A stretch of DNA of 64,000 nt from Marchantia polymorpha subsp. ruderalis (Eukaryota > Streptophyta > Marchantiopsida > Marchantiales > Marchantiaceae): the NCBI GenBank assembly GCA_037833965.1, contig AP031354.1, positions 21,492,001 to 21,556,000 of the forward strand. The letters are read 5' to 3'. Positions 3,247 through 63,119 of this stretch are shown here, piece by piece; position 1 is the stretch's first letter; every line of letters begins with the position of its first letter. The notes below the pieces were generated by a model, which ran no database searches, was not told the origin of the DNA, and worked only from the letters and a program-made list of their open reading frames with translations. The translations under genes and the position numbers were made by a program.

Positions 3247-3487
3247 TGGCAGCAGAGGCCAACACTTTACTTCAAATCTGCAACCAGACCATAACCATCT
3301 GCGATCTAACGTCACCCATGCTATTCAAATTTAATAATTTACCCAAATTATTAAATAATCCAAATTCCTGGTTGGATCTTGACAAACACTGCCCTTAGCA
3401 TTCCTTGTGCCCATCCATGGAAAAATAATGTCACCGAAAACCCAGGGGCATGGGTACGGGCACCCAATGTCGGGCTCTGGATGGCAG
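3247..3487. mobile_element. Second small insertion in arm A flanked by a short direct repeat
   Basis: About 235 bp absent from arm B separate two copies of TGGCAG (3247-3252 and 3482-3487). Arm B has a single copy between the same gag codons. The insert is non-coding and contains an AT-rich centre near 3330-3360. No terminal inverted repeats or poly-A tail are clear, so the element class is unknown. Confidence 0.5.
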
Positions 3488-4572
3488 TCCCTTCAAGTAC
3501 CACCAAAACCTTCAATCTTTCAGGATAGGGTTCATCGACACTCTGCAATTGATTGATCAACCTCGTCAGTTTGATCGAGCATTTTCTAATGGATTCATCA
3601 GGCTTCTTCTTTATCCTGCTGAGTTCGGTCAGCAATCTGTGAGGATTTCGACGAAATTTCTTCACAAGCGCAGCGCGGAGGCTCTCCCAATCTCCTCGTT
3701 CGTCTGGATTCAAAGACGTGTACCAACTGAGAGCTCGTTCCTTGAGCAAATTGGGAAGAGTTCGCAGTTTGTCTTCATCCGAGACCTGTTCATTATACAT
3801 GCCTTCGAAATCTTGGAGGAAGTACTCGACATCTTCAGATGGACTTCCATTGAAATCTGCGTACTCAATGGTGTAATTCTTTTCGCAGTGGGAGTCATCC
3901 ATTCTCAGCCTAACCGGAAACGTTGGTCGTATGAGGCCCCAGAGCATTTCGTGCCCCTCATGACAGATTCTGCGTCCAGCTCTAGCCGCTTTCCCACCTG
4001 CATCGAGCCTCGTCCTCTTCCTCTGCTTTCCCAGAGGTTCTCACTCCGACAAGTTAGAGATGGCCGACCACGTCGGTTTAGAACAGCGCTTCCATGCCCA
4101 CCCCTGCTTCGAGATAAAGTTTTCAGAAATCGAGAATGAATTGTTCATTTGCCCGTGCACTGAGTTATGTACAAACCAGAGTTCAGCCGCAGTGATTTCA
4201 AAAGTGCCATGTGGAGCAATTAGCTCGCTTTCAGAAAAGCCCAAATTCTGTCGAAATGTCTGAATTGAACCTGTCGGTGGTCTTCTACGAAACGAGACAG
4301 TGCCTCTGATATCTAAGCATTCACGTCTATAATTTACAATCATCGGTGTTTCTCTGCAGAATTCTATTTACCTCTTTCTCTCGATTCAACAGCCACACGA
4401 GCCCTCTTCGGCAGTCAGATTGAAGAGCATCATCGAACAGCATTGCGACGATTGCAGAACGACAATTTTGCAGAAAAAGAAGCTCAGGGCTTCTACTCAA
4501 TTCGAGTGTTGAGAGAGATGGTCAGAATCTCATCCTCCATCCACAGTGCGTACCTCACCTTAAGTTAAGACC

Positions 4573-14837: not shown

Positions 14838-15238
14838 AGTAAAATAGAATTGTGAAGAGAAATAGCGATTGTTGTGGATTATAGACACTGTCTCATATCG
14901 TAGAAGATCACCGAAGGTTCAATTTAAACATTTCGACAGAATTTGGGCTTTTCTGAAAGCGAGCTAATTGCTCCACATGGCACTTTTGAAATCAGCGGCT
15001 GAAATCTGGTTTGTACATAACTCACTGCACGGGGAAATGAACAATTCATCCTCGATTTCTGAAAACTTTTATCTCGAAGCAGGGGTGGGCATGGAAGCGC
15101 TGTTCTAAACCGACGTGGGCGGCCATCTCTAACTTGTCGGAGTGAGAACCTGTGGGAAAGCAGAGGAAGAGGACGAGGCTCGATGCAGGTGGGAAAGCGG
15201 CTAGAGCTGGACGCAGAATCTGTCACGAGGGGCACGAA

Positions 15239-16222
15239 ATGCTCTGGGGCCTCATGCGACCAACGTTTCCGGTTAGGCTGAGAATGGATGACTCCTACTG
15301 CGAAAAGGATTACACCATTGAGTATGCAAATTTCAATGGAAGTCCATCTGAAGATGTTGAGTACTTCCTCCGAGATTTCGAAGCCATCGCGCAGTACAAC
15401 GAACAGGTCTCGGATGAAGACAAACTGCGAACTCTTCCCAATTTGCTCAAAGAACGAGCTCTCAGTTGGTACACGTCTTTGAATGCAGACGAACGAGGAG
15501 ATTGGGAAAGCCTCCGCGCTGCGCTTGTGAAGAAATTTCGTCGAAATCCTCACAGATTGCTGACCAAACTCAGCAGGATAAAGAAGAAGCCTGATGAATC
15601 CATTAGAAAATACTCGATCAAACTGACAAGGCTGATCAATCAATTGCAGAGTGTCGATGAACCCTATCCTGAAAGATTGAAGGTATGGTGGTACTTGAAG
15701 GGACTGCCAACATCCATTTGCAAGTATTGCCTGCAAGCAGGTAATAACTCCACCCTGGAAGCTGCTATATCGATTGCCAAGACCTACGAAGCGACGGCTA
15801 AGACTCCTCGTCAAGAACTTCACGGAAGAGGTACTGAAAGGTCAGACGATGCGGATGCTGACGCTGATGCGAGTTCTGAAATTTCTGATCTTGAGAGTTG
15901 TACATCCATGGGGACATTCATTTCCAGTATTGCCGAATCAGTTGATTTGAGGAGCAGAAACTTAGCTCCGAGAAAAATTCATTCCTCACCCAGCCGCCGC
16001 AAAGCGCTTGTCTCATCCCGGGAGAGCAAGACCAGTATACGCACCGAACGTCCTTCAAAGACGGTTGTTAAAAGAGAAGCTGCGAAGCTATGCTGCAAGA
16101 GTAACGATCGACAAGAAGATGTGAGACTTGGAACAAGACTGGATCGCCGATCTGCAAGTATTCAGGATGACATTGAAAGGCTTACCAGGGGACTGCACGG
16201 GCAAATCTACCTTCGAAGATAA
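15239..16222 (+). CDS. Ty3/gypsy-type gag polyprotein, open frame without pol
   Basis: An uninterrupted frame that encodes 327 residues from the first ATG (15239). The reading frame is open back to 15146 but has no earlier ATG. Residues about 37-170 match the retrotransposon gag core: a W-Y motif (ALSWYTSLN), the F-R-R-N-P helix and a lysine-rich stretch, followed by WWYLKGLP. After this comes an acidic run (DADADADASS, near residue 205) and a basic, polar tail; no CCHC zinc knuckle, protease, reverse transcriptase or integrase follows. After the stop, host-like NPF sequence on the other strand begins within 450 bases. In Ty3 elements pol normally follows gag directly, so this is a gag-only remnant or a captured gag gene. 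Whether it is expressed is unknown. Confidence 0.7.
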   Translation: MLWGLMRPTFPVRLRMDDSYCEKDYTIEYANFNGSPSEDVEYFLRDFEAIAQYNEQVSDEDKLRTLPNLLKERALSWYTSLNADERGDWESLRAALVKKFRRNPHRLLTKLSRIKKKPDESIRKYSIKLTRLINQLQSVDEPYPERLKVWWYLKGLPTSICKYCLQAGNNSTLEAAISIAKTYEATAKTPRQELHGRGTERSDDADADADASSEISDLESCTSMGTFISSIAESVDLRSRNLAPRKIHSSPSRRKALVSSRESKTSIRTERPSKTVVKREAAKLCCKSNDRQEDVRLGTRLDRRSASIQDDIERLTRGLHGQIYLRR

Positions 16223-32149: not shown

Positions 32150-33580
32150 TTACTGGGGGATAGAGTCCTACAAAATGGACAGTAAACACAATCATCAGTC
32201 ATCTGGCGTTAAGTATTCTATAAGCTATCGACTTCTACAATAAGAGAGTACTTGGTCTATAAACTATGAGGCAGGAGGGCACGCTTTGATTTCATAGATG
32301 TCTCGACCGCTCTCCGAATTTCATGTTCACATTATCTTTAAGAAGGGACTCCATGTGAGCTCGAAATGTGACTGGAGAATGATGACTTACTGTGATCTTG
32401 TCCTTGAGGTTACTCAAAAAATCTTTGCCTCCCTCGACGGCATCGCTGGCCTTATCCTGAACCTGATCAGCGACATTGCCAGCCTTGTTGCTAGCTTGCC
32501 TGGTCACACCCTGGGTCGATGCGATGTCACTCTTGACCTTGTCTCCTGTAGTCTCGACGTCGGACTTCACCTTGCTGGGTCCGTTGTTCACGAGGTCCTC
32601 GATTCCTCCTCTGACATTGTTGGCAGCATCCTCGATCGAGCTGGTTGACAAATCTCCAGCATTGTTGTTTCCCTTGAACAGGTCTCCGAGTCTGCTTCCA
32701 GCTTCCTCAACATTCTTCTTCGCCGTTTCGATCGTCTTGTCTGCTCCGGCTTGAAGACCTTCGATAGGTCCACCTCCGGCCCTGTGTGCTCACACATGTC
32801 AGATTTGGCACCAGCTGAGGAATTCTCAAATCAAAGGCGATCTATTCATCTCAGCGCAACAATTCATGCATCGAGAAAGTATTGACACTTACTGCAGGGC
32901 GAGCTTGTCGGGCTTCAGGAGAGATCCTTCGGGCAGGCGCTCACCACCGAACCGCTGCGGTGATTCGTTGGTGGTGAAATCGTCTCCGGCTTTCAAGAGA
33001 TCGTTGGCCTGCTTGGAGGTGATGGCGGCTCCGTCATTTCCTGGGCCCGAGGCAGCCAAGGAGCTCCCGGCTACCATGAATGAGCTGCCAGCGACAGCCA
33101 AAGCAGCACCGGCTGCCACTAAACCTGCCAGCATTTCCTTCCTCGCTGACCTGGGTTCCTGCGGTCGTGAGCATCCGGGGTTACGTTACTCCACCATGTA
33201 TCAGATTCGCCCACTTGCTACTCGAGGATACAATCTGATCAATCACATTTCACCAAAAAATCTACAATCCACATATTCAATCGACTCCTAGATCATTCCT
33301 GGGAAGTGAACTTGAAATTCCTTTCAGCCTCAAAATTTACAGACTGGAGACAAGAACTCGAGTGCTACACTGATTACCAGACTTCAGACAATTAAGCATC
33401 AGGATTCAGAGCAACCCTTACCTCGGATGCACTAGCCCTGATGCTCACGACGCCTCTCCGGGCAGTCTTGCATGGAGCAACACTGACGACCGGGGTGGCG
33501 AAAGAAGTCCGAGACGAGAGGAGGGAAGGGGCAGCCACAGCGCTGCTGGAGAGGGTAAGAGATGCTGTAGATGCTGCCAT
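32150..33580 (-). CDS. Putative thylakoid-lumen LEA-like protein, paralogue 1
   Basis: Four exons in coding order: 33422-33580, 32893-33158, 32391-32781 and 32150-32167 (phases 0, 2, 0), 277 residues. Exon 1 is a 53-residue Ser/Ala/Arg-rich plastid transit peptide. Exon 2 opens with EPRSARKEML, a twin-arginine-like signal with Arg-Lys in place of Arg-Arg, followed by a hydrophobic Ala/Val/Gly segment and an Ala-x-Ala type site near residue 88 (SLA/ASGPG). The mature part, about 189 residues, has the motif ANDLLKAGDDF and then a Lys/Asp/Ala/Gly-rich helical domain with 11-residue steps such as KVKSDVETTGD and KVKSDIASTQG. The last exon adds only DSIPQ and the stop. Function is unknown; the composition suggests a hydrophilic, LEA-like protectant in the thylakoid lumen. 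A TATA box and two G-boxes lie upstream. Confidence 0.85.
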
Positions 33581-33764
33581 GATTGTAAGTGAATTCGACG
33601 AATTGATAGGAGTACAGAGATCAGAAAGTTGAGCTGCAATCTGCACTGGAAATCGTAGAAATGATCTAATTGAAGAATTGGAATCGGAGATACTGCTTGA
33701 TAATGCTTACTACAGATTGCTGCTGCTCGAATGCTGTGTGATACAAGTGGCACGGCGACCGGAG

Positions 33765-33772
33765 CTTATATA
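33765..33772 (-). promoter_or_regulatory. TATA box of paralogue 1
   Basis: TATATAAG on the minus strand, 185 bases upstream of the ATG. Paralogues 2 and 3 have TATA boxes at similar distances (141 and 146 bases). Confidence 0.7.
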
Positions 33773-33848
33773 CGTGAGAGCTTCGAGGCCCGAACATCCA
33801 GCGCCGAGGCCCGATCTGACGGCCTTGAGCCTGCGACTCAAGGCCCGG

Positions 33849-33854
33849 CACGTG
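33849..33854 (-). promoter_or_regulatory. G-box/ABRE, proximal, paralogue 1
   Basis: Palindromic CACGTG in the context GGCACGTGGT, 77 bases upstream of the TATA box. Plant bZIP (ABA or light response) and bHLH factors bind this core. Confidence 0.6.
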
Positions 33855-33918
33855 GTCTAGAGGCAATGGAGCTGCGAATTGCGCCCGAGGAACAATGCGT
33901 TGAGGATAATCAACGCCC

Positions 33919-33924
33919 CACGTG
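33919..33924 (-). promoter_or_regulatory. G-box/ABRE, distal, paralogue 1
   Basis: A second CACGTG (context CCCACGTGTC), about 70 bases further upstream. Two ACGT-core elements within about 100 bases is the classic ABA-response arrangement. Confidence 0.6.
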
Positions 33925-35429
33925 TCGCGAGGAAAGTCGGCTCGCAGCCTTCGTATTGGCCCGGGGATTTCGGCCCGAGGACGAGGTCGCGATTCTGCTG
34001 TAGACGCACGACACTTGGCTCCAACGATGGTACGATGTCACGGCTGCGGGCACTTGGCACTTTGCATGCCCATGCTCGCCTTCGTTCTCGTGCTCGTGCT
34101 CCCTCCCTCCGTCTGAGACTCTGAGACTCTGAGCGAGCGAGCGAGTGAGTGAGTGAGTGACTGCCGCTGACAGTGGTCGCCTAGATCGATCTGTTGTAGC
34201 CAGGCAGAGTGGGCCTCGGGGTCGTCGAATCGAAAACGTGCGGAGTTTCGTTTCGTGGTCGTTTGGGGTCTATTGATCTGAAACTTCACTATTGATCCCT
34301 TGGATTGAGACTCGTGTAATTCGTTTGTCTCCGGTGTTCGACAATTACTGTACTCCCCCCCTCCGACATCCCGATCTGGGCTCGGGTTGTTGGGGATTCC
34401 CGTACGAGGATGGATGCCCATGACATTAGTCCGGTCTGCCTGCCAGACCGACGAAGACGGCCAATCTCCTGAAGATGCATCAGGGTCCATGGAATGCATT
34501 TGTTCCAACTGATGAGTGTCTTATCTACAGCGTATGCATTCGAGCAGACCATCAGTGCTCCATGCTGAACGATCGGGCTTCTTGCTTGCGCTTGCTGTTA
34601 GTGCGAACTGGGCCAGTAATGAGCTTGTGAAACATGGTCAGGCCCATGTTAATTTACTAGATAATTAAAGTTTAAAATGAGCATTTTAATGTACAGTGAT
34701 CAGATTATTGTTATCATGAGAACTTTCGAAATCATAATTTTGAGCTTATGATTGTGAAGTACATTCCGGTTAAAGATAAATGCTACATATTTTGCCATAG
34801 ATTGTAATAAAAAATTATCGTGAAATTGTTATGGATAGATTGTTTGATGATATACTTGAAGATGGAAATTAGGTTGTTTTAATATATTATATTGAATGAT
34901 GTTTTATCCTTTGTAGTAGAGTAATTTTATTTTTCTTTAGGTGAAAGAGAGAAAGTGTAAATATTTATTACATATATTTTGTAATGTCTAACTTGTGTTT
35001 CGGCGGTTTGGAGACGATGATTGTGAAGGCTAGTATCAAAGTATTTCAATCAGATTTGTCTTTGTTTCTGGTTGTTTCTAAACTTCATTCACTCTTGATA
35101 ATTTCGCATGGAGCTGTTCGGTACTGAGCGATTGGTGAGACATTGTGTAGATTGGAACATTAAGGTTTTATTCATAATCGTGTCATGCATATGTTACAAC
35201 TGTACAACCTCTTGCAGAGGAACGTCGTCGAGCTTTGACGGAAAGAACGTCGATGGCTCTCTATCCTCTACGATACACTACAAAACGCGCCTACTGACGC
35301 TCGCCTTCGTATAAACCCATGAGTACAATATACAATCGCCATCGCCATGTAGTCTCTTCTCTGCTCTTCGTGGCACGGTTGCTTCGCTCGCTCGCTCGCT
35401 CTGCGCTGCCTCGAAAAAATGTCGTCTGT

Positions 35430-36686
35430 CTACTGAGGAATAGCATCCTGCCACAAACATAACCAATTCTCACATTCAGTGCGTGCAAGTGAAACACTCC
35501 ATGAGATAGTCGAAGGTTATCGATACTTATGGAGAATGTATCACATGAACGAGTGAGTGCTAAGCAAGGCAACTGTCAGACGAGATTATGGCAGAAGAGG
35601 ATGGTTGCTTACAGTGACCATGTCTTTGAGGTTGCTCAACATTCCCTTGCCACCTTCGACGGCATCTTTGGCCTTGTCTTGGGCCTGGTCGATGACGTTG
35701 CTGGCGTTGTTGCTAGCTTGCTTGCCCAAGCCCTTGGTCGAGGCGATGTCGTTCTTCACCTTGCCGGATCCGTTCTTAACGAGATCGTTCACTCCTCCCT
35801 GAACTTTCTCCACGGGGTTGCTGGCCAGGTTGTTGTTCTTCTTCCCGAAGATTCCGTCGATCCGTGCCTGTGCGTTTCTCAAGTTCTTCTTCGCTCCCTC
35901 GATCGTCTTGGTGGCAGTGTTCTCCGCTCCCTCTTGAGCTCCTCGAACTCCGGATCCAGCTCTGCGAATTCGTCGTCATCAAATCATTAGCTTCCATTCT
36001 CTCATTTCAATACAAACAAATTCAAATAGCGCTCTGTATACTCTCCAAATCCTCTGCCTAGTCTGGGCTCAGAGGATGATCGACTTCCAAAAGCACGAGT
36101 GCACGAAAGAATGCCCCTTACTGTTGAGCGATGTTGTTATTTCCCGTGCGCAGTCCATCGGGACCAGCGAATCGTGGAGGAGAGTCGTTGTTGATCAGGT
36201 CGTCTCCGGCCTTCAGAAGCTGATCGGCCTTCTTAGCAACTCGCTTCGCTCCCTGGTTCCCTGGGCCTGATGCAGCCAGAGCATTGCCAGTGGACACCAG
36301 CACTGCACCTGCGGCCAGCAGACTAGCCAGCATCTCCCTCCTAGCAGCCTTTGGCTCCTGAACAATAACCCACCGATCATCGACGTCAGCACGTGGATCC
36401 GAGACACACATTCGATAATCTATCGACAAATCCATAGCACTACGACGACACCGAAACTCAAGAGAATGTATACGAGAACAGGGGAAATATAATTCTGAAA
36501 ATGTCATGAATGACGGCGGTTCCTCACCTCTTGAATGGAGGCACAGATGGTCATGGGGCCGGTGCGTGCTGTCTTACATTGTGCAACACTGACAACTGGG
36601 GACGAGAATGCGGACCGGGATGAGAGGCTGGACGGAGCGACCGCGCTGGTGGCGGCGAGAGCCATAGTCGATGCGCAAGCTGCCAT
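35430..36686 (-). CDS. Putative thylakoid-lumen LEA-like protein, paralogue 2
   Basis: Four exons: 36528-36686, 36122-36357, 35613-35961 and 35430-35447 (phases 0, 2, 0), 253 residues. Exon 1 is a 53-residue plastid transit peptide of the same length as in paralogue 1 (SSPVVSVAQCKTAR against ATPVVSVAPCKTAR). Exon 2 begins EPKAARREML, with a true twin arginine at 59-60, a hydrophobic stretch and the cleavage-type site NALA/ASGPG at about 81. The motif ADQLLKAGDDLINNDSPPRF and the ARIDGIFGKKN block are shared with paralogue 3. Compared with paralogues 1 and 3, one 11-residue unit is missing between GKVKND and IASTK. The terminal exon encodes DAIPQ and the stop. Same inferred role: soluble, highly charged helical protein of the thylakoid lumen. 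Confidence 0.85.
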
Positions 36687-36826
36687 GATAATTTTCGTCG
36701 AATTTAAAGACTACAAGAGACTTACTGAGCTGAAAGTGAGAGAGAGAGGAAGTAGAGGTTTGATTACAGAGGGGAGAGAGGGAGATGATTGCCTGCCGAT
36801 GATGCCGAGAGTCTCGACCGGGACAG

Positions 36827-36834
36827 AATATATA
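36827..36834 (-). promoter_or_regulatory. TATA box of paralogue 2
   Basis: TATATATT on the minus strand, 141 bases upstream of the ATG. Confidence 0.65.
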
Positions 36835-36916
36835 GTGCAAGGCTCCTTGAGAGTGCAGCGTTCGAGGCAGAAAACACGGTCAGATTGAGCGATTTGAACA
36901 TTCCGTCAAGTTCCGG

Positions 36917-36922
36917 CACGTG
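36917..36922 (-). promoter_or_regulatory. G-box/ABRE of paralogue 2
   Basis: CACGTG in the context GGCACGTGGC, 83 bases upstream of the TATA box and nearly identical to the proximal element of paralogue 1. Confidence 0.6.
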
Positions 36923-37500
36923 GCTTGCTCAGAATGGGTGTCCATTCGTGGAGTCAGATCTGGAGGGCGTCCGTCCTTTGCAATGGTGTCGAAGACCCAC
37001 GCGTCGTGAGTACAACTGGACTGATGCGCATGCCCCCTCCTAAACCTTCCCGAAGATTTGACACTTGGCCGCAGCATGAGAGCCATAGCCAGCCAGCCAA
37101 TTCCTTGCCTTCGCTTCACAAGAATCGTCTTATTAGACGCTGGAGCCCGTGACAAAAGACGTAAATGGACTCGAGAGTCTACACAACGAATCATCTCCAT
37201 GCTGATAAGCCTCGATGTAATAATCACCCTGAGCCATAACCATCCCGACACGAGTGTTATTACTGCGCCCTCGGCTTCCTCTTCTGATGATCTGGATCTA
37301 GGAAGTTACTTCCATCTACGAGGTCCATTCATCGTACGCTCGGCTTTCCTGAACTTTCTATCATTCGTATCGCAGTTTTTCATAATCATCATTTTGTCTG
37401 TTCCACTCTTTTGTTCTCATGCGAGAGCGAGAGCCTTTCTCTTCCCGCCAGTGAAACTGATCAGTCGATGGTGACGATGCCTTCTTCACGATCCCTCCCG

Positions 37501-37528
37501 GAGAGATCATCAGAGTCGATGATCTCTC
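37501..37528. repeat. Perfect 11-bp inverted repeat
   Basis: GAGAGATCATC at 37501-37511 pairs with GATGATCTCTC at 37518-37528 across a 6-nt loop. It lies in the spacer between paralogues 2 and 3. No flanking duplication was seen. Confidence 0.5.
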
Positions 37529-40098
37529 AATCAATCTTATGGGATGCTAAGCGGGTGACGTTTTCATCGACGTATATCTCGCTCTGGAGCCAAGTGTCGG
37601 CTCTGGACGTGCTCGATGAAATCGACGCCTGTTTCGTAGTTCGATCTGTCCTATGTCCAATTACAACCATGCACTTTAGGAATCATTCGTACATGGAGAA
37701 CACGTGCTGTACCTACCTACCTCTTATAGCTTTCAGACAGCAGAGTTGCAGTGGGTTTTGGGACTCACTTCCGTGGTGGAGCATCTCTCAGAAGATACCC
37801 TTCCAGATGCCTATCCTCTTGGCTATGGTTGTTTATGTGATCGTCGGCTCATGACGCAAGTTGCGATTGAGTAACTTGGTTGCACTCATTCTCGGCAAGT
37901 CTTCATTGACTTCAGCTAGTCGGGAATTTTAATACGTCAGTCTACACTTATGCGGTTCGATGACAGTTTTCATGCGTGATGTTGTAAGTCCGTGTGACCA
38001 CGATTACATTACGTGGATAGATCAACGACGGCAGCAGAAGTGATTTACGCGGACAAATTTCGAGCCGCTCTTGATTAATACCTTCAAGTTAGTCGAGGTG
38101 ATTTGAATCTTGTGCTGAGTAAGATATCGATATGATACGGCTAGGTCTGTTATGAATTTACGAATGGTTCTCTTTGATGTGTGACCCTGAAAGGTGGAAG
38201 TAGAAGTTTTGCAATTTCTTTTAAGTTTGCCGTTTCCATCTGACAACCATTCGATAACTCTCGAGTGAGTCAGCCGATATGGAATTGTGATTCTGGAACG
38301 ATCGAGCGACTGCAGTGCAGCTGTTCATTTTACAATTCTGCAAATGCTCCTAGTTTTTGCAGCTGTGTGCTGCAGAGACTGTATAGCTTCGTAGAAGCAA
38401 TTGCTTGTGGTAGTTTATCTTGGGCACACGAGAATCTACAGAAGACAAATATCTGGGAAGCTCTGATAGTACGTACGTTCAGTTTGTACACAAACCCATT
38501 GAGTGCGCACGATCGCTCTTACCCACTCCTCGTGATTGCCCAAGAATCATAAGCTGTCGTCAGCAGCAGCAGCTCTGCATTATTATGCAGTCAGTCAACA
38601 AAGCTTCCTGTCATCGTTTAGAGCTCAATTGGTTATGCGAAGCGCATTTGGTCAAATCGATTTTAGCGAGAACTCCCTCAGCGACACTTGGGTCAGATCG
38701 GATCACCCACACACGTTTTCGTACCTCGGCCATGTGCAGAAGCGTAGGACCAGCTACTACTACACTCTCGGAAGTTAGTTGCTGGGACCGACGCTCTCGA
38801 TCGATGCTGAGGAAGAAAATAAACGAAACGAATTTAAGGTCGGCCCTCAGCATTGCAGAGTTTGTGTCAACGCAGTCAAAACAAAATGACAGCATGAAAA
38901 GCTGCATGTGCTGAGCCCCAGAAGAATGTTCGAGATACACCAGAGTTCCCGGTTCGTACGGCCATGAAAGGTCAAGTAGTAGAGAAACAGGACGTGGTCC
39001 GCCCTCGGCATCTCGCAGACGTATATTGCGGACGTACTCGATTCATACAAAAGTTGTGGTACGTGTCCACAAGAGAAGTCTATTGAGGCTCGTGAGTCCT
39101 TGCTTGCCAAGATATGTGGACTTTGCTTTATGGCATCTGGATTCATCGTTGGAGTTTCTCGATCGGACACTTGGCTGCTCGAAGGAATCTCTCCCCTGCA
39201 GACCGAGGTGAAAAATCCGTAGTATGGTCGACGATCCAAGCTTGAAGTCAAACGTCTTTTCTTGAGTACATTTCTTCAACATTCTTCGAGGCATATAAAG
39301 TGGTGACTGGCCATCCATGAATTCTAAATAATACTGATCGAGTAGAAAGTAAAATAACGACAACGATGGTAATAATAGCCCCTATCCTGTCTAAACCAAC
39401 CCACTGTGAAATATGTTACACTACACATTAAATATATGTTTTAAACTGAAAAAACGTTCCAGAAACGAAGGCTGGATTGAAATAAAGGCTTCGGCAGTTG
39501 CAATTTTCACGATTGTATAGAAAGAATCATAGTTCATTTTGCCTTACTAATAGATGATGCCTTTATTCGAAGATTTTTGGGCTCTGTACCCTCCCAAACT
39601 ATGATTTTTATTACTAGAAATCCAAGTACGCCATCTAGAACAAAGTACGATACGAATTACCAAAACGTAGCATTTTAATTTTTTTCACAATTCTGTAATA
39701 TGTAACCACAACCACGGTGGCTTCACCGCCCACAGGCTATAGGGGTGTTATGGAGTCACGTAGATTACCTTAGGCAATAGTCCGGCAATCGATAACATAA
39801 TGAAAAAGTTCTCACTCGTCTTTGAACGATATTGGTCTCCATGCTTTTGCATTCAAAGTTCATTTCTGTGGCCCGATGTAGCACTTCCATTTCTTCCTTT
39901 AGTGATGAAGTGAACATCGGCTGCAGTCAAGTGGCATGCCCCGAGCTGTTCACAAGATCAGAGTCGCAACCTTGTTCTGTGATCATAACTCCGAGCCCAA
40001 TATAGACTTTCCATAAATCAGGGTTGCTAGTACATGGTTGACACGTATCTTCCTCGATAGCTAACGCCAATGTAAGCAGAGAAACCTAAGAACATGAC

Positions 40099-40104
40099 CA
40101 CGTG
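40099..40104 (+). promoter_or_regulatory. G-box/ABRE of paralogue 3
   Basis: CACGTG in the context GACCACGTGTTG, 69 bases upstream of the TATA box. Confidence 0.6.
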
Positions 40105-40172
40105 TTGTCATACAATTTGGCCAGGGCTGAAGTGAGATCCAGGCCAGGTCTCGCGATGGCTAATCTCCAATG

Positions 40173-40180
40173 TATAAAGG
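40173..40180 (+). promoter_or_regulatory. TATA box of paralogue 3
   Basis: TATAAAGG, 146 bases upstream of the ATG at 40326. Confidence 0.65.
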
Positions 40181-40325
40181 ATGTCATTCCTCTGAGTGTA
40201 ATCATTGAAAATTCAACCTCTCAAGCACCAACTTCCGCACAATTCTCCACACCAATTGTCACCCAGGAAGTGAGCAGCTTTCCCAGCAACTAAGTACTTC
40301 AGTCTTACGACATCACCAGCGAAGT

Positions 40326-41770
40326 ATGGCAGCTTCAGCACGAACAATGTCGCTGTCCAGCACGGCTGCGGTAGCTCCTTCCCGCCTGTCTTCTCTTGCC
40401 GCATTCACAAGTCCCGTGGTCAGTGCAGTTCCATTCAATTCTGCTCCATCTCTGAAGAACTCGATCAACATACGGGCCACTTATGAGGTACGTGATCTTT
40501 ACAGAAGATTATTGAAGATTAGACGGTCAAAATATCAGAAGAATAGAAGCGGTGATCTGCAATGCATCAGATTTCACGTCACAGGATTAGAGCTCTTAGA
40601 GCTTCGATTGTCTCTCGTGTCAGTCAGAGCACTCAGATGAATCTTGGCAAGTAGCATGCGCGTCATGTGTACGGACAAGCTTGTCATCCTCCAATCATTC
40701 AATTGTTTTCCATTTTCTTGCGTGCTCATTGCCATCCTGAAGCCCACAGCATCTCTCGTCGGTATTTCGAGCACTATGTTAATATGTTGCTCTCTTGAAT
40801 GTACTGCCATGACCATAAATGACTTCAGGAGCCACGCGCTGCCAGAAGAGAAATGCTGGCTGGTTTGATTGCCACCGGTGCCGCTTTGGCTTCAGCAGGA
40901 AGCGCCTTGGCCGCATCGGGTCCAGGAATTCCAGGAGCGAAGCGCACCGCCCAAAAGGCAGACGAACTGCTCAAGGCAGGCGATGACCTCATCAACAACG
41001 ACTCTCCTCCACGATTCGGTGGCTCTCGCGTCGAGGGCTCTCTCAAGAACTCAGGCAAAATCGCTCAACAGTAAGCATCCATATCCATCAATATAGATTT
41101 TTCTGATTCCCTGCACAATGACGAACCTCGATGATGACAAAGGATCCAGTTTATTACCTGCAAGGAGGCAACCATTTAAGAGTCTTATAAAGAAATTAAA
41201 GCACCACTTAACATACTGGAAATCACAGGGCTGGATCAGGGGCTGTTGAGGGACTCCAAGACGGTGCCAGCAAGACCATCGAAGGTGCCAAGAAGAATGC
41301 AAAGATAGCTCAAGCACGAATCGATGGAATCTTCGGAAAGAAGAACGTAGTGGCCAACAATCCCTTGGAGAAAGCAGCTGGCAGTGTGAAGGGTGGCGTC
41401 GACGATCTCCTGAAGAACGGATCAGGCAAGATCAAGGCGGACGTGAGAACCGCCGCAGACAAAGTCAAGAGCGATGTCGCATCTACCCGCGGTCTGGGCA
41501 AGAAAGCCAACAGCAAGGCCGGCAACATCGTCGATCAAGCCCGAGACAATGCAAGCAACGCAGTTGAAGAAGGAAAAGGGGTGCTGGGCAATATCAAGAA
41601 CCAAATCACTGTAAGTAACAATTTCACAAACTTCTGTTTGCGGTTGTGTATCAGTGCTGTCGCTGATTTCTCTTAAAATCTTAAGCTTGTGTGTGGTCCT
41701 GCCGAATCAGGAACTGACAGATCGTCTCTGCAATTCTTATATCCTTTTGCAGAACGCTATTCCTCAGTAA
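40326..41770 (+). CDS. Putative thylakoid-lumen LEA-like protein, paralogue 3
   Basis: Four exons: 40326-40487, 40829-41070, 41229-41610 and 41753-41770 (phases 0, 2, 0), 267 residues. Residues 1-54 form the transit peptide. EPRAARREMLAGL carries the twin arginine at 60-61, and SALA/ASGPG gives a lumenal cleavage site near residue 82. The mature part, about 185 residues, contains ADELLKAGDDLINNDSPPRF, ARIDGIFGKKN and the charged helical region with 11-residue steps (KIKADVRTAAD, KVKSDVASTRG) and DQARDNASNAVEEGKG. It has no cysteine in the mature part and no obvious catalytic motif. The 18-nt last exon encodes NAIPQ and the stop. It is oriented away from paralogues 1 and 2 and is followed by a decayed copy. 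Role inferred as for the others. Confidence 0.87.
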
Positions 41771-43023
41771 TCAAATTGATAAGCGGACCATGATCACAAG
41801 AGAGTGAAGTTATCAAGTGTAATATAGTGGGCTATGAATGATAGGTTCCTAGGAAGTACAACTTGTACACTTGCCTGTACATTAGACTGCTGGAAGCACG
41901 ATGTGAGTCCTCGAAAGGGGATTATTGTAACATAACCATTTTTTAGCTCAAGTGCAGTTAAAGCCGGACAAAAGCCCAAATTTTCTCAAAGAGCGAGTGG
42001 CTGTTTCTAAAAGTGACATGAAAATTGAGTTGAATTTGAACGTGCAACATACAATTGTTATATTGTGATAATTAAAACAACGAAACTGCCAGTGAATGTT
42101 TCCGGTGTTTGTAATCAACTTGATATAACCTTTCATCATGAAACTATGTACAAAACGAAGATGTAGAAAAATGGAGGAGAAATTTGATATAACGAGTATG
42201 TTGTACGTGAAGGATACTCCCCTCCGTTTGTAAAAGAAGGGGAAGGAAATAATCTTAAAAAATGTTCTATTTTGTCAGTCTAAAAGTGTCGAAAGCTCAA
42301 GCCTTTGTGCTTTAGAAAGCCAGCAAATCACCATCTTGTCTCTTGATAATAACACTATACATGCTCGAGACATTCAATTGGATTCGTACAGGGAGAAACG
42401 CGTCTGTTGTTCTCTCTTCGCAGGACATGTCTAGCTCCTATAGGATCATGGTCTCTTGGAAACAATATCATGAGCGATTGCGTATAGCAAGATTTGGGCA
42501 TATAGAAGGCTCTCATCTTCACAACCATCTCGACGGGAAAGCAATAGCAACCTCATCAGTAGTCATAGCTCTTTCCGGCAGTTCCGTGACTTGTGACCTC
42601 TCATCTTCTGCAGGCTTTGCACTTCCCATTCCAGTCCGAAGGGAGTCTATCAGCTTCCGGGCCGCTTTATCTGAGGTGAGAAAATTCCGAAGAAGGTATT
42701 CGATCCTGACTCTGGACCAGGACTTAATTATCAGTACAAGAGTTGCTGCGATGATCAGTTGATTGGATGATCGTCATGACATCATGCCTCAACCTGAGCG
42801 AAGGATTTAAGTGCTAGCACTTGATTACCTTCTGGCTATATTACTCACGAATTTCGGGCTTTTCCAACTTTCATTCTATGATTCTCTGAAATCTCTTCAC
42901 AACGGTGCTGGTCCGTGACTGGACAGTCTGCTGAACAAATCTTTGAGTGACTCTTTGCTGAGTTCTGAGGCCTGCACCATCAGCTCACCTCATCTCGAAT
43001 TGCCGATTATTCCAAAGGCCATG

Positions 43024-43080
43024 TTGTTACTTGTTACTTAATTGTTACTTGATTGTTACTTGCTTGAGCCTACTTGTTAC
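43024..43080. repeat. Short tandem repeat of TTGTTACTT-like units
   Basis: About five imperfect copies of a 10-12-bp unit containing TTGTTACTT lie just upstream of the exon 2-like block of the decayed paralogue. It looks like a small minisatellite. Confidence 0.6.
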
Positions 43081-43581
43081 AATTACTGTATGTAATGGAC
43101 GTCGTAACTTGCTTTTCCATCAAGAGCCATAAGTTGTTTGAAGTTGCTGGTTTGATGGCCACTTGTGCCGCTTTGGCTTCAGCAGGAAGTGCTCTGGCTA
43201 CGCTGCATCGGGTCAGGAGTTTTAGCAGCAAAGCAGCAGACGGTACTCAAGGTCGATGAGCAACTGAAAGCAGGCAAGGAATGACTCTCCTCCACGATAT
43301 GGCAGTTCTGGGTTTGGAGATCTCTGAATTGGTATGGCAGAGTTGCCAATGCTAAACATCATCGTCCAACGACTGAGAATTTTCCACTTCCCCGATCACT
43401 GTCAACCGTTTGACGAAGCAACCCATTCTATAACACGTAACAATGACGATGGACTCTGAGACGCGTAGATACTCAACCGGTATGACTTGACGACATTACA
43501 GTGACGGATCAGGAGCTTTTCATAGACTTCAAGATGGTTCCAGCAAGACAACCGAAGGTGCGAAGAACAATGCTCAGATGA

Positions 43582-43606
43582 GACTGGATGGAAATTCCAT
43601 CCAGTC
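43582..43606. repeat. 25-bp palindrome in the pseudogene
   Basis: GACTGGATGGAA at 43582-43593 and its exact complement at 43595-43606 flank a single base. Paralogue 3 has no such sequence at the aligned place, so it was probably produced by an inverted templated insertion. Confidence 0.6.
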
Positions 43607-43770
43607 ATCTGCATTCCATCATGGAATCCAGTGGCGAGCAAGCCTGTGGATGAAGCTGCGGGGTTGACGATCTACATAAGCACGAACCAAGTGAGATGAG
43701 GTGAGGTGAGATCGGACGTGAGCACAGCAAGTCAACATCGTCAATCAAAACAAAACTTCGCAACGAACTC

Positions 43771-48294: not shown

Positions 48295-50283
48295 CTATGG
48301 ACGGAATGTCAGAGTCTCTTCCATGGAGAGAAGTATTCTGAGGATCGGAATGACTTGCGGCAGCTTGGTGGGCACCGTGGCGATGTCTTCGTCTTGGTAG
48401 AGGTTCACGAGCGCCCAGGCTGCCTTCTCCTGCACGCTGGGATACTCGAACCTCAGCAGCAGGCCCAGCAGAGCTGCCACAGCATCCTCGTTCGCACCGA
48501 CCTTCCACTTGTTGCTTTTGTCTAGGGTTAGATTGCCCAGGGCCAGCGCCGTCTGCTCCAAAATCACGCTCTCCATGCCGCTGCATCTGTACCCGGGGCT
48601 GCTGTACTCGAGGATCACGTTGGCGAGGCTCGAGACGCACTTGGACGTGACATTCAGCTGCGACAATCCGTCGATGCTCGTGAGATTCGACAGCGCCCTC
48701 GTCACCTCCTTGAGCATGCAGGTGTTCTCGGTTTTGGACAGCAATGGAACGAGGCAGGTCCACGCATCGGGAAATCTCGCTATAATGGCGTCGTTCTCGG
48801 GCGCGTAGGAGAGATTGGCCAGCACCCTCGAAACCTGTTCCTGCGCACCGGGGCTCTCGTCCCTCGTCAGGACGTGAATCAGACCTCCCACGATGCCAGG
48901 CCAATCTGCAATATTCATGATCACTGGCAGATTCTCCGGCTGCGCCCGCGACAGGTTGCTCAGCGTCCACGCAGCCTGCTCCTGCCCATCGGGATCCGAA
49001 TCGTTGAAGAGCATGTCGACCATGGCCGGCAGAAATCCGGGGCACTCGACGAGCTTCGACCTGTTGGCCTTGGCCAGCGACAGATTGCCCAGGAACATGG
49101 CGACATTGTCCGTCCGATTGAACCGGAACGTCAGAGCTGCTTCGAGCACATTGGGATGGTGGGCGATGGACGCTTGGATCTCCTCGTTGATTGCGAGATT
49201 CGACAGCGGCAAAATTGCCGATGCATTGAATTGCACCAGCAGGCGGATTAGGCGCTCTAAGGTCCGAGGAAAGTGCACGCAGCGCACAACCATCTGCCCG
49301 TGCTCTGGAGTGGACGAGAGGCACGAGAGCGCCTTGCAGACATTGTCCTGTAAAGCAGGCCTGCTGTGGTCGAGGAGGAGCCCCGAGAGAGCGCCCACGA
49401 TGCTGATGGGAAACTCCAGAAGCCTTTGCACATTGTCCTCGACCATGGCGAGGTGGACGAGCACTCTCGTGGCGGCCTCTTGGGATCCCCTCCTCTGGTG
49501 CATGAACAGCAGTCTGATCAGCCCTTCGAGGGCGTACGCGTTCGCCATGATCATCGCCCCGCCTTCGGTCGTGGACGCGATGTTGCCCAATGCCATCGCT
49601 GCCTCTTGGTGGACCTGCACTGTGATCTCGCGCGATCTTTCATGGGCACCGGCCCGTCCATCTTCGAACAGCAGGTTCACCAATCCCGCCAAGGCTTGTG
49701 GGTAGCGCAGAAACCATAGCTGCTGTTCCTCGTCGTCTTGGGCGAGGGCCAAGTTGCCCAGCGAGAGCGCTGCGTGAATTTGCAGGTTGGGGCTGTCGCT
49801 TTTGAATAAGAGCTTGACGAGGCCCTCGAGCGCTCGATTGTGTTCCAACACTTTACACTGCTGCTCCTCCTCGCTCGAGAGCTGCACCAGAGCCCTCGCC
49901 GCCTGCTCTTGCAGCACGGGGCTGTCGTCCAGGAAGAGCAGAGGCACAATGTCCTTCAACTGCAAACTCCCGCTCGCTCGTCGGCGGAATCTCAAGCACC
50001 GCCTGACTGCGGCTTTCAGCTTGCTGGGAGAATTTCCGATTCGGAAGCCCAGCAAGCCATCCTCGTGATCGGACCTTGGCCTGAAACTCTCCTCGACTCT
50101 GAACCAACCCGGGGTCGTCGTCGTCGTCGTCGTCGAGGTCTCTGCGGTTGCTCCTCCATCTCGAGATCTGTCCACCGGTGGTGGCGAGGACGCTCGAGTC
50201 ACGAAAGCCAAACCCAGCACCTCGCCCGATTCCCCATCGCCTCCATCTAAAACAACTACGCACGGGACACGATTATCGCCCAT
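48295..50283 (-). CDS. Armadillo-repeat protein, intronless
   Basis: One uninterrupted frame of 662 residues from the first ATG (50281-50283); the frame is open further upstream but has no earlier ATG. Residues 1 to about 95 are polar, with a threonine run (eight Thr) and a basic stretch (RRCLRFRRRAS), and are probably disordered. From about 100 to the end there are roughly eleven armadillo repeats of 40-60 residues, each with the hallmark helix of the form ALGNLAL: ARALVQLSS, ALSLGNLAL, AAMALGNIAS, KALSCLSS, LPLSNLAI, AMFLGNLSL, AAWTLSNLSR, SRVLANLSY, TRALSNLTS, ALALGNLTL and AAWALVNLY. Such solenoids are protein-binding scaffolds. There is no U-box, F-box, kinase or importin-beta-binding motif to suggest a specific role. 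A single-exon gene is compatible with an origin by retroposition but does not prove it. Confidence 0.9.
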   Translation of the reverse strand: MGDNRVPCVVVLDGGDGESGEVLGLAFVTRASSPPPVDRSRDGGATAETSTTTTTTTPGWFRVEESFRPRSDHEDGLLGFRIGNSPSKLKAAVRRCLRFRRRASGSLQLKDIVPLLFLDDSPVLQEQAARALVQLSSEEEQQCKVLEHNRALEGLVKLLFKSDSPNLQIHAALSLGNLALAQDDEEQQLWFLRYPQALAGLVNLLFEDGRAGAHERSREITVQVHQEAAMALGNIASTTEGGAMIMANAYALEGLIRLLFMHQRRGSQEAATRVLVHLAMVEDNVQRLLEFPISIVGALSGLLLDHSRPALQDNVCKALSCLSSTPEHGQMVVRCVHFPRTLERLIRLLVQFNASAILPLSNLAINEEIQASIAHHPNVLEAALTFRFNRTDNVAMFLGNLSLAKANRSKLVECPGFLPAMVDMLFNDSDPDGQEQAAWTLSNLSRAQPENLPVIMNIADWPGIVGGLIHVLTRDESPGAQEQVSRVLANLSYAPENDAIIARFPDAWTCLVPLLSKTENTCMLKEVTRALSNLTSIDGLSQLNVTSKCVSSLANVILEYSSPGYRCSGMESVILEQTALALGNLTLDKSNKWKVGANEDAVAALLGLLLRFEYPSVQEKAAWALVNLYQDEDIATVPTKLPQVIPILRILLSMEETLTFRP

Positions 50284-51027
50284 CCGACCTTCCGGACCCG
50301 CAAATTGTCTGCACCCCTCGAGCACACCCACAAGCTCGTCTCGTCTCGTCTCGTCTCTGCCGATCACAGCAGCTCAAGGATTTGGGTACTGTTTTTGAAT
50401 GTCCCAAGATTGGAATAGACGGGGGTCATCATTGCACCGCCCTGGTGCAGCTTTGCATCTTCGAGATTATCTATCTGTAGTGAGTGAGTGAGTACTGTGA
50501 GCTCGTCGGGAGCACACTCCGAGTCCGGAGGACTGGCTGCAGATGGGGTGGGAGAGGGAGTGGGCGCGAGAGGGCTTGTGTACTGGGGCAGAGCCGGATC
50601 CACGCACTGCATGCAATTAAATTAGCAATCGGGCAGTCAGTCAGTCCAGTCCAGGTTCCTTTGGAGATGTCGATAAGATTCAACGGAAGTCGCCTCGTTC
50701 AAAGTCCAAACGGAGGAGCTTGTCGTACATGGATTTCTGATCGCTGTTGGGGTTAACGTGGCGCTGAAGACAGAAAGTCAATGGGTTTGTGATGCGGTCA
50801 AGATTGGAATATGTTGAATGCCATTTGGGTGGCCCTACGACCAAGCTCTCTGGCCGCTTCTGTAGGCCTTGCCTTGGCGTATTTGGACGAGTGGGCTCTC
50901 TATAATTACTCCTCTCATCAACATCAACCGGTTGCCTGATTCTCCGATTCGCCACAGAAGCATATTATCTCACAAATATGTTGCGCTTCCGAGCCCCCAA
51001 AGGAGATTGAGCCACAGATTGGTTCTC

Positions 51028-61179: not shown

Positions 61180-63119
61180 TCACCTGCCAGATGCTGAGCC
61201 GTAGGCTTTTCCAAAAAAAAGGAGCTGAAGCTGGTCATAACCTGAAAGGACGCCTGCTCCAGCAATACCAAGCAAGATGTTCGCAACTGTACCTCTGAAA
61301 AGAGCTGTTACTCCTTCTTTAGCCACAATCTGCCTGAAGGCATCGACAGTGCCCTTGTACTTCACAGCTTCACCCGAGGTCATCATCATCCTTCGCCGGA
61401 CCGTGTCAAAAGGATAAGCAACAATGCCAGCCGCAGTAGTAACAGCCCAACCAAGGAGAAAACTGCAGATGAAGCTATCCTGCAGGAACCAGGACCTCAC
61501 GTTTCAGACCACTGAAGTATCAAACGCCTACCTGAAAATCAGACGCCGAATGCATTCTTTCCCTGATATGAGGTAATGTTGCTCTAGGGGAGCAAGCATG
61601 TACTTCCAGACCGTACAGCCTTTCATTTGACTCAACTGGGAACGAAGAAACCCAACGGCACATGTATAGAGATAGTTGTTTTTCAGTTCAATTGAAAACT
61701 AAAACTGGGCCTTGCAATCTTGCTGTCCAGTGGACTCATTGGTCATCACTGTTGAATTTACAAGCTTCGCACTCTGGTAGCGTCTTCAAATTTGAGAGAT
61801 AAATGATGCGTTACTACCCTTCAGACTTCCTATTCGCATATGGTACCACAAACAAGAGATGTTACCTCCATGGATCCCACCAAAAGTACTGGCTTCGCAG
61901 AGTCGTACATTCCGAAGTAGAGCCCTCTATACACAACAATGCCAACGATAGAAGCGTTGAAACCCCTGTACAATCCAATAACTCCGTCCGAAGCAATTGT
62001 TTTTTGATAGACATCGACGAGCCCGTTGAACTGGCGGCGGCCACCAGTTTGCAAACTTTTCGCATCATTGGTTAGTCGAGTCCGAGCGTAATCCAAAGAG
62101 TACACGAAAAGAGAAGAAGCAGCACCGGCTGCCCCTCCAGAAGCCAAATTTCCACCGAACCATTTCCAGTAACCATCCGTCTCCTGACTGTAACCAAAGA
62201 GGCTCTTGAAATAATCCTTGAAGGCAAAATTGAAAGCCTGCGACACCCAGAAGCCATCAAATTTTTGAATCAAGTACTAGCTTGCACTCAGAAATAGAAG
62301 ATTCGCCTTGCGAAAGGTTGGATTGCTAAGCTCCTCATTTCTTTGCTATGTAATCCAGAGTACTTCATCAACATTTTAAAAGGAATGAGGGACTTGATAA
62401 CATCGCTGACATGCGATTCGCGTTGACTGTAATAAAAGCAGGCCACCAGCACGTCGAAGTGTATTCAAGCCGGATCGATCAAACACACGGTGTTCACATT
62501 ACAGTTTCAAGCTACAAGTAAAACCAACCCGAGCTGCAGATAGGAATGTATCACAAATCGAAGTAGCCAACCTGGACCTTTCTGCATGCATATGGGCTTG
62601 CTGCAAGTTTCCTAAAATTCAGAATTCGAAATTAATATGGAGAAAAAATAGCACCTGAGTTGGGAAATATCGTATGACGTTAGTGAAATTACCCCTCCAA
62701 AAGGCAAGTAGGCCTTCATCTTTCATAATTCTTTTGAAACAATCTCCAATGCCCTTGTATGGATCGACTAAGCGACCAGTCTTGAGCAACTCTCCCTGAT
62801 TTTGGACCAAGAGCTTCACTCGCTCGATCGGAGCGGCAACGGTTTTCGAAACAGCTGCTGATGCTCCCCCCATCATGAAATCTACAATGAATGAGTGCTC
62901 CATCTCCCTAGAAGAAGGTACAAAGATGGGAGAGAGCACCGGATGTGTGCACTGATATGGTGCAAAATTGGCAACATTTTTACAAAAGGTGGAGGTCCCA
63001 GCCGAGGATGAATGACTATTGTACAAAGCCGTTTTTCTTCTGCAGGGGCCTAGAATTCGCTCGTAGATTTCCCTCTGCTGGAAATTTTGAGCAGTGAATC
63101 GTTCCGGGACAGAAGCCAT
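61180..63119 (-). CDS. ADP/ATP carrier (adenine nucleotide translocator), mitochondrial carrier family
   Basis: Three exons: 62655-63119, 61866-62237 and 61180-61479 (phase 0 throughout), 378 residues. Residues 1 to about 73 are a basic, Ser-rich extension as in plant carriers. Three carrier repeats follow, with signature motifs [11 protein letters not shown] (repeat 1), [10 protein letters not shown] (repeat 2; Ser for Pro is usual in plants) and [12 protein letters not shown] (repeat 3). RRRMMM at about 307-312 is the mark of ADP/ATP exchangers, which swap cytosolic ADP for matrix ATP across the inner mitochondrial membrane. Equivalents of bovine Lys22 and Arg79 are present (Lys92 in SKTVAAP, Arg150 in NVIRYFPTQ). 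The equivalent of bovine Arg279 is Leu349 ([11 protein letters not shown]), which is unusual. Otherwise length and layout are normal. Confidence 0.93.

What the first reader, a model, noticed from the sequence alone, without database searches (positions are those of the whole stretch)
32150..43770. Cluster of LEA-like proteins apparently sent to the thylakoid lumen by a Tat-type signal
Three intact genes and one dead one share an unusual design: plastid transit peptide, twin-arginine signal with Ala-x-Ala site, then a hydrophilic, Lys/Asp/Ala/Gly-rich helical domain with 11-residue periodicity. The targeting elements and repeats are seen directly. LEA-like proteins are known in chloroplast stroma and elsewhere, but I know of no named family dedicated to the lumen through the Tat route. 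Tat carries folded proteins, which would be odd for a disordered LEA protein. Cluster expansion, G-boxes and a desiccation-prone plant group would fit a lumen-protection system.
Basis: partly seen in the sequence, partly recalled or inferred. Interest (0 to 1): 0.85.

Follow-up and report, generated by a model that had tools for sequence, protein, structure and literature searches.

The report
Liverwort thylakoid-lumen LEA-like gene cluster
A liverwort carries a cluster of three working genes and one dead copy for a little-known family of floppy, helix-forming proteins apparently sent into the innermost compartment of the chloroplast; relatives occur in green algae, moss and ferns, including a protein named from fern green spores, and they may protect photosynthetic membranes when the plant dries out.

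Summary
The cluster is real. Gene C is Marchantia polymorpha MPTK1_4g15760. Three genes (A, B on -, C on +) have four exons, the same intron positions and phases, GT-AG introns and a shared end ...IPQ; a fourth copy is broken. Exon 1 looks like a plastid transit peptide, exon 2 holds a lumen-type signal and a conserved core starting [S/T]GPG, exon 3 a hydrophilic amphipathic-helix tail. Two corrections. (1) Only B and C have RR and Ala-x-Ala; A has RK and Ser-Leu-Ala, and RR stands in 15 of 27 readable family signals: the lumen signal is the family trait, the Tat motif is not. (2) It is no Marchantia novelty: relatives are in Riccia, Calypogeia, Sphagnum, Ceratopteris, Osmunda and, by identifier, two zygnematophyte algae. 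The Osmunda entry is titled '22-kDa protein of chloroplasts in green spores'. No hit named a seed plant. The three genes reach no Pfam cut-off, LEA included. Best reading: a streptophyte family of lumenal, LEA-like amphipathic-helix proteins guarding thylakoids on drying. Location rests on sequence alone; function is inference.

The parts
32150..33580 (-). gene A (277 aa): exons 33580-33422, 33158-32893, 32781-32391, 32167-32150; signal ARKEMLAGL... with RK, likely cut SLA|ASGPG; mature pI 4.7
   Evidence: orthologue in M. paleacea P0011
35430..36686 (-). gene B (253 aa): exons 36686-36528, 36357-36122, 35961-35613, 35447-35430; signal ARREMLASL..., likely cut ALA|ASGPG
   Evidence: database protein P0004 and M. 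paleacea P0003
40326..41770 (+). gene C (267 aa): exons 40326-40487, 40829-41070, 41229-41610, 41753-41770; signal ARREMLAGL..., likely cut ALA|ASGPG
   Evidence: P0001 MPTK1_4g15760 100% identity over 98% of the query, M. paleacea P0002
40829..41070 (+). exon 2 of gene C: lumen-type signal plus conserved core (SGPGxxGAxxTAxKADxLLKAGDDLxxxDSPPRFG), the part shared by the family
41229..41610 (+). exon 3 of gene C: variable LEA-like amphipathic-helix tail
   Evidence: model of the gene B protein
43126..43740 (+). pseudogene: exon-2 remnant 43126-43349 and exon-3 remnant 43506-43740, frame broken
33849..33924 (.). two CACGTG boxes upstream of gene A (33849, 33919)
36917..36922 (.). CACGTG box upstream of gene B
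40099..40104 (.). CACGTG box upstream of gene C

Best explanation
The cluster encodes three members of a streptophyte family of small, hydrophilic proteins of the thylakoid lumen. Exon 1 carries the protein into the plastid (inferred from composition); the exon-2 signal carries it across the thylakoid membrane and is cut just before the residue that precedes [S/T]GPG (inferred from the conserved site). The mature protein has a conserved core of about 60 residues with one confidently predicted helix, and a variable tail of amphipathic helices that are not predicted to pack on each other. As in LEA group 3 and COR15-type proteins (comparison from general knowledge), the tail would be mostly disordered in water and fold on the lumenal face of the membrane, or around lumenal proteins, as water is lost, keeping thylakoids and extrinsic photosystem II proteins from fusing or aggregating in dry green tissue and green spores; the core would be a docking element. 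B and C probably cross by Tat; A more likely by cpSec or weakly by Tat. ABA/drying control through the G-boxes is a prediction.
For: Gene structure and open frames; dN 0.25-0.34 against dS 1.34-1.56 between paralogues (dS near saturation). Conserved signal and core in 31 rows: the Ala before the likely cut, GPG, and single core A, D, P and R residues unchanged in 31 of 31. Homologues in liverworts, Sphagnum, ferns and, by identifier, two zygnematophytes. Osmunda homologue titled '22-kDa protein of chloroplasts in green spores'; its mature part computes to 17.8 kDa, and running large on gels would be usual for LEA-like proteins (recalled). Tail periodicity best at 96-101 degrees in 14 of 15 tails, P<0.05 at 98.2 degrees in 12 of 15 (16 of the 31 rows were given, one tail too short). 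AlphaFold: isolated helices, pTM 0.25. Tail likeness to a designed helix bundle (E 1.3e-8) and apolipophorin III (6.2e-5) in a profile search of solved structures, which I read as shared amphipathic-helix pattern; much weaker likeness to PsbQ, PsbW, PsbP and PsbTn precursors in the signal region (E 0.011 to 3.2), not decisive.
Against: No targeting predictor, import assay or expression record could be used. No LEA Pfam model was listed. Charge-hydropathy puts A and B just on the disordered side, C at the boundary, and 3 of 6 homologues on the folded side. The first AlphaFold run was under pLDDT 50 in 261 of 267 residues; the second reached 70 or more in 80 of 246, so structure is suggestive only. 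The tail is short in Mesotaenium (19 residues past the first 60) and not periodic in Spirogloea, so the LEA-like part is not what defines the family; the core may have a specific job unrelated to drying. G-box enrichment is weak per gene.
Confidence: 0.5

Rival explanations
1. A lumenal accessory or assembly factor of photosystem II or another lumen complex: the conserved [S/T]GPG...SPPRFG core is the working part and binds a partner; the helical tail is a spacer or low-selection extension.
For: Core is conserved to zygnematophytes while the part past the first 60 mature residues varies from 19 to 269 residues among 16 proteins (the 269 is an uncurated Riccia gene model); some core residues are unchanged in 31 of 31 rows; signal region resembles photosystem II extrinsic subunits weakly.
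Against: No Pfam family reaches its cut-off for the three genes; no hit in three searches names a seed plant, unlike core photosystem II subunits; tail amphipathicity is kept in most members tested; between the two Marchantia species tails are nearly as conserved as cores (for A 121 of 129 against 58 of 60; B 101 of 112 against 51 of 57; C 102 of 125 against 53 of 60).
Confidence: 0.27
2. A stromal or inner-envelope LEA-like protein (COR15-like) whose hydrophobic stretch is an anchor or is not used as a lumen signal.
For: The hydrophobic stretch is not proven to be cut; RR is not general; chloroplast LEA-like proteins are known from the stroma (recalled).
Against: Small-x-Ala followed by one residue and [S/T]GPG is kept in all 31 rows although the stretch before it varies in length and sequence, as expected of a cleaved lumen signal; the exon 1/exon 2 border separates transit peptide from signal in all three window genes.
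Confidence: 0.13
3. Dedicated Tat cargo of the lumen: the family is defined by Tat transport.
For: RR in genes B and C and in 15 of 27 readable signals, including Spirogloea, Sphagnum and Calypogeia.
Against: RK in gene A, its M. paleacea orthologue and both Riccia proteins, one clade with support 99/94, RK in one further row, KR in one and no pair in six.
Confidence: 0.1

Closest known systems
Osmunda japonica '22-kDa protein of chloroplasts in green spores' (P0010)
   Same: Homologous: mature start ASGPG, KAxDLLK, APKRFGPG, AQKAGSGA, amphipathic tail
   Different: Deposited sequence begins inside the signal, so its n-region is unknown; only the database title was seen, no paper on it was found
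LEA group 3 / LEA_4 (Pfam PF02987, accession recalled) and COR15-type chloroplast LEA proteins
   Same: Hydrophilic, Ala/Lys/Asp/Gly-rich, 11/3-helix amphipathic tail
   Different: No Pfam LEA match listed; conserved non-repetitive core; lumen-type signal instead of stromal targeting
PsbQ, PsbP and PsbTn (lumenal photosystem II proteins with bipartite targeting)
   Same: Plastid transit peptide plus thylakoid signal, RR in many members; weak matches in the targeting region
   Different: Mature part shows no likeness in those calls
Apolipophorin III / apolipoprotein A1-type exchangeable helices
   Same: Amphipathic helix pattern; E 6.2e-5 for apolipophorin III, best 0.00047 for the Pfam apolipoprotein model, matched by 5 of 29 members
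   Different: Animal lipid carriers; likeness most probably convergent

Membership tests
Family of the Osmunda green-spore 22-kDa protein | Conserved core after the signal ([S/T]GPG..GA..A..L.KA.D...P.R) | tested here: met
Family of the Osmunda green-spore 22-kDa protein | Abundance in chloroplasts of dry green spores | not testable with these tools
   no expression data; only the entry title
LEA_4 / LEA group 3 | Pfam LEA model above gathering score | tested here: not met
   no LEA family listed at E<=10 for the three genes, nor among the 20 families listed at E<=1 for 29 members; HMMER's filters drop most matches above about 0.1
LEA_4 / LEA group 3 | 11-residue amphipathic helix periodicity | tested here: met
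   literal lag-11 identity significant in A only; 3 of 15 tails not significant at 98.2 degrees
LEA_4 / LEA group 3 | Disordered in water, helical on drying | tested here: inconclusive
   charge-hydropathy borderline; AlphaFold pLDDT 36.6 and 60.3, pTM 0.21 and 0.25
Thylakoid Tat substrates | Twin arginine before the hydrophobic stretch | tested here: inconclusive
   met in B and C, not in A (RK); 15 of 27 readable rows in the family
Thylakoid Tat substrates | Transport driven by the proton gradient through TatC | not testable with these tools
   needs import assay
Thylakoid lumen proteins | Transit peptide, hydrophobic signal, small-x-Ala cleavage site | tested here: met
   Ala-x-Ala in 22 of 31 rows, Ser/Gly/Thr-x-Ala in 9 of 31; transit-peptide composition counted for the three window genes only

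The most novel reading that the evidence does not exclude
An undescribed family of thylakoid-lumen desiccation protectants that arose before land plants, was kept in algae, bryophytes and ferns with dry-surviving green tissue or green spores and was lost in seed plants; it would be the missing lumen-side counterpart of stromal LEA proteins, and in its RR members a natural, largely disordered Tat cargo, with a switch to RK (probably cpSec) in the Marchantia A/Riccia lineage.
Probability: 0.33. Interest if true: 0.78.

Novelty: new variant of a known kind. Interest (0 to 1): 0.58.

Why it matters
How green tissue keeps its thylakoids intact through drying is an open question. A lumen-targeted LEA-like family shared by algae close to land plants, bryophytes and ferns would give a directly testable set of genes in Marchantia, a transformable model. 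The natural mix of RR, RK, KR and unpaired-Arg signals in front of one kind of hydrophilic cargo is also a ready set for asking what thylakoid Tat and Sec will carry.

Tried and rejected
A genome-wide search for a degenerate Tat-like DNA pattern was badly designed and told nothing. Weak own-genome matches outside the cluster, L019 (E 0.15) and L020 (E 0.41), look like chance on reading. Likeness to PsbQ, apolipoprotein, DivIVA, alanine zipper and others was set aside as signal or composition matches; for the three genes and the first member all are below the curated cut-offs, but one search does not show cut-offs for the other 28 members (best E 0.0003, alanine zipper). A fold search was not run because no model reached useful confidence. 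In the tree Spirogloea falls beside Marchantia B (92/86) on a very long branch, which I take for an artefact; the RR label needs 5 changes on that tree. Paper searches: LEA protein + thylakoid lumen + twin-arginine, 0 papers; Marchantia + late embryogenesis abundant + thylakoid lumen, 1 paper, whose passages speak of LEA homologues and of lumen pH separately; late embryogenesis abundant + thylakoid lumen + desiccation tolerance, 6 papers by listing, of which only that one was opened; five spellings of Marchantia locus names, three of them guessed neighbours, 0; five locus names of relatives and one of gene B, 0; searches for the Osmunda protein listed no paper on it (and 29, where 20 of 78 were listed). 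One of those, on desiccation of green fern spores (PMC6764020, passages), says that to its authors' knowledge only one study had looked at molecular mechanisms there, LEA proteins in Onoclea. A Marchantia/LEA search gave 11 papers by listing, none opened; one search gave 7, of which PMC6708511 was opened for passages. From memory only: work on a 22-kDa green-spore protein by a Japanese group in the 1990s.

Full report
What is there. The window is part of a 241-Mb, nine-contig genome, and gene C is 100% identical over 98% of its length to Marchantia polymorpha MPTK1_4g15760. I rebuilt the genes by hand: A (-, 277 aa), B (-, 253 aa), C (+, 267 aa). Each has four exons; all nine introns are GT-AG; introns sit at the same places with phases 0, 2, 0. 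Exon 1 ends just before the thylakoid signal, exon 2 holds the signal and a conserved core, exon 3 the long tail, exon 4 five codons and the stop, [D/N][A/S]IPQ. M. paleacea has the three orthologues under neighbouring locus numbers (Mapa_013168, 013170, 013171), each on a contig of 869,991 bases, so most likely the same one; the cluster is then older than the split of the two species. In the own genome 10 of the 12 listed places are in this cluster (one of the ten, in the pseudogene, at E 0.105); the other two have E 0.15 and 0.41. Paralogue dN/dS is about 0.2 with dS 1.34-1.56, near saturation. A broken copy lies at 43126-43740.

Targeting. Exon 1 of the three genes is Ser/Thr/Ala-rich with one acidic residue. 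B and C then read ARREML... and ALA|ASGPG; gene A reads ARKEML... and SLA|ASGPG. I compared 31 rows (3 window genes and 28 of the 40 database proteins; dropped were three proteins equal to or cut from A, B and C, one exon of B, and eight fragments lacking signal or core). The script tallied RR 15, RK 5, KR 1, none 10; four of the ten 'none' rows begin inside the signal (P0007, P0010, P0024, P0032), which leaves 27 readable rows, 15 with RR, 5 RK, 1 KR and 6 without a pair. Rows are not independent and some are exon-like fragments. Gene A, its M. paleacea orthologue and both Riccia proteins form one RK clade (support 99/94; that tree used 27 of the 31 rows and warns of long branches). Ceratopteris and Mesotaenium have only unpaired Arg. 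So the lumen-type signal is a family trait, whereas twin arginine is common but not required. For B and C Tat is likely; for A it is doubtful. A review's passages (PMC6708511) say that thylakoid Tat proofreading seems less stringent, unfolded proteins also being imported, and that disordered segments of 100-120 aa were tolerated, with efficiency falling with length; the mature parts here are longer (172-189 aa). A hydrophilic disordered cargo is thus not excluded, but not established either.

Mature protein. In all 31 rows the Ala before the likely cut, GPG and single A, D, P and R residues of the core are unchanged. Past the first 60 mature residues the tail varied from 19 to 269 residues in the 16 proteins I tested (the longest is an uncurated Riccia model). 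Hydropathy of the tails of A, B and C is periodic at 98.2 degrees, the 11/3 helix, beyond 2000 shuffles. Of the 16, 15 had tails long enough; the best angle was 96-101 degrees in 14, and P at 98.2 degrees was below 0.05 in 12; Riccia sorocarpa (0.56), P0027 (0.07) and Spirogloea (0.22) were not. AlphaFold on the M. paleacea C orthologue with 12 rows gave pLDDT 36.6; on the gene B protein with 29 rows 60.3 and pTM 0.25, with three better helices (core 81-103, tail 137-162 and 207-243, numbering of P0004). Low pTM suggests no fixed packing between them. Charge-hydropathy is borderline. This fits a chain of conditional amphipathic helices, but does not prove disorder. No Pfam family reached its cut-off for the three genes.

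Who else has it. Three protein searches (each capped at about 8000 scored candidates) found relatives in Marchantia, Riccia, Calypogeia, Sphagnum, Ceratopteris and Osmunda, in contigs without organism names, and in two EukProt entries whose identifiers (Mesen1/ME000320..., SM000417...) I recall as Mesotaenium endlicherianum and Spirogloea muscicola, both Zygnematophyceae. Only 10 of the 32 rows carry an organism or genome label. No labelled hit is a seed plant or prokaryote; the searches need shared exact words, so absence is provisional, and no labelled Physcomitrium, hornwort or lycophyte was seen either. The Osmunda entry is titled '22-kDa protein of chloroplasts in green spores': an independent hint that the family is a chloroplast protein of tissue that can survive drying. 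No paper on it was listed in the held library. Exon-like fragments from Sphagnum (P0023, assigned by its likeness to the named Sphagnum proteins) and other contigs (P0035-P0037) end at the same place as exon 2 here, suggesting an old shared gene structure; this I judged by eye.

Regulation. Each gene has a CACGTG between -344 and -227 (two in A), 4 of 7 in the window; against shuffled 1-kb upstream regions P is 0.03, 0.14 and 0.14. Suggestive of ABA/light control, no more.

Mechanism and verdict. Shown: gene structures, conserved signal and core, amphipathic tail, phylogenetic spread. Inferred (my estimates): lumen location about 0.85, Tat for B and C about 0.6 and for A about 0.25, protective LEA-like role on drying about 0.5. 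The main rival is a partner-binding lumen factor in which the core, not the tail, matters. No LEA model matches, so I call it LEA-like, not LEA. A new variant of a known kind: LEA-like chloroplast proteins, but on the lumen side, with a defined core, and apparently present before land plants.

Noticed in passing
41229-43225: The database model MPTK1_4g15760 (P0001) joins exon 3 of gene C to pseudogene stretches, giving a 33-residue foreign C-terminus in place of NAIPQ: an annotation chimera or a real read-through transcript (matched by eye).
   Followed up: partly
15152-16219: Ty3-type retrotransposon gag reading frame (Pfam Retrotrans_gag 1.1e-11); a similar frame lies on the other strand at 3351-3947 (by eye).
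   Followed up: no
48298-50367: Open frame of 690 aa with armadillo repeats on the minus strand.
   Followed up: no
61833-63119: Two open frames matching the mitochondrial carrier family on the minus strand, probably exons of one gene.
   Followed up: no
32150-41770: Mature proteins differ sharply in charge: A pI 4.7, B 9.7, C 9.8, hinting at divided roles between an acidic and two basic lumenal paralogues.
   Followed up: no
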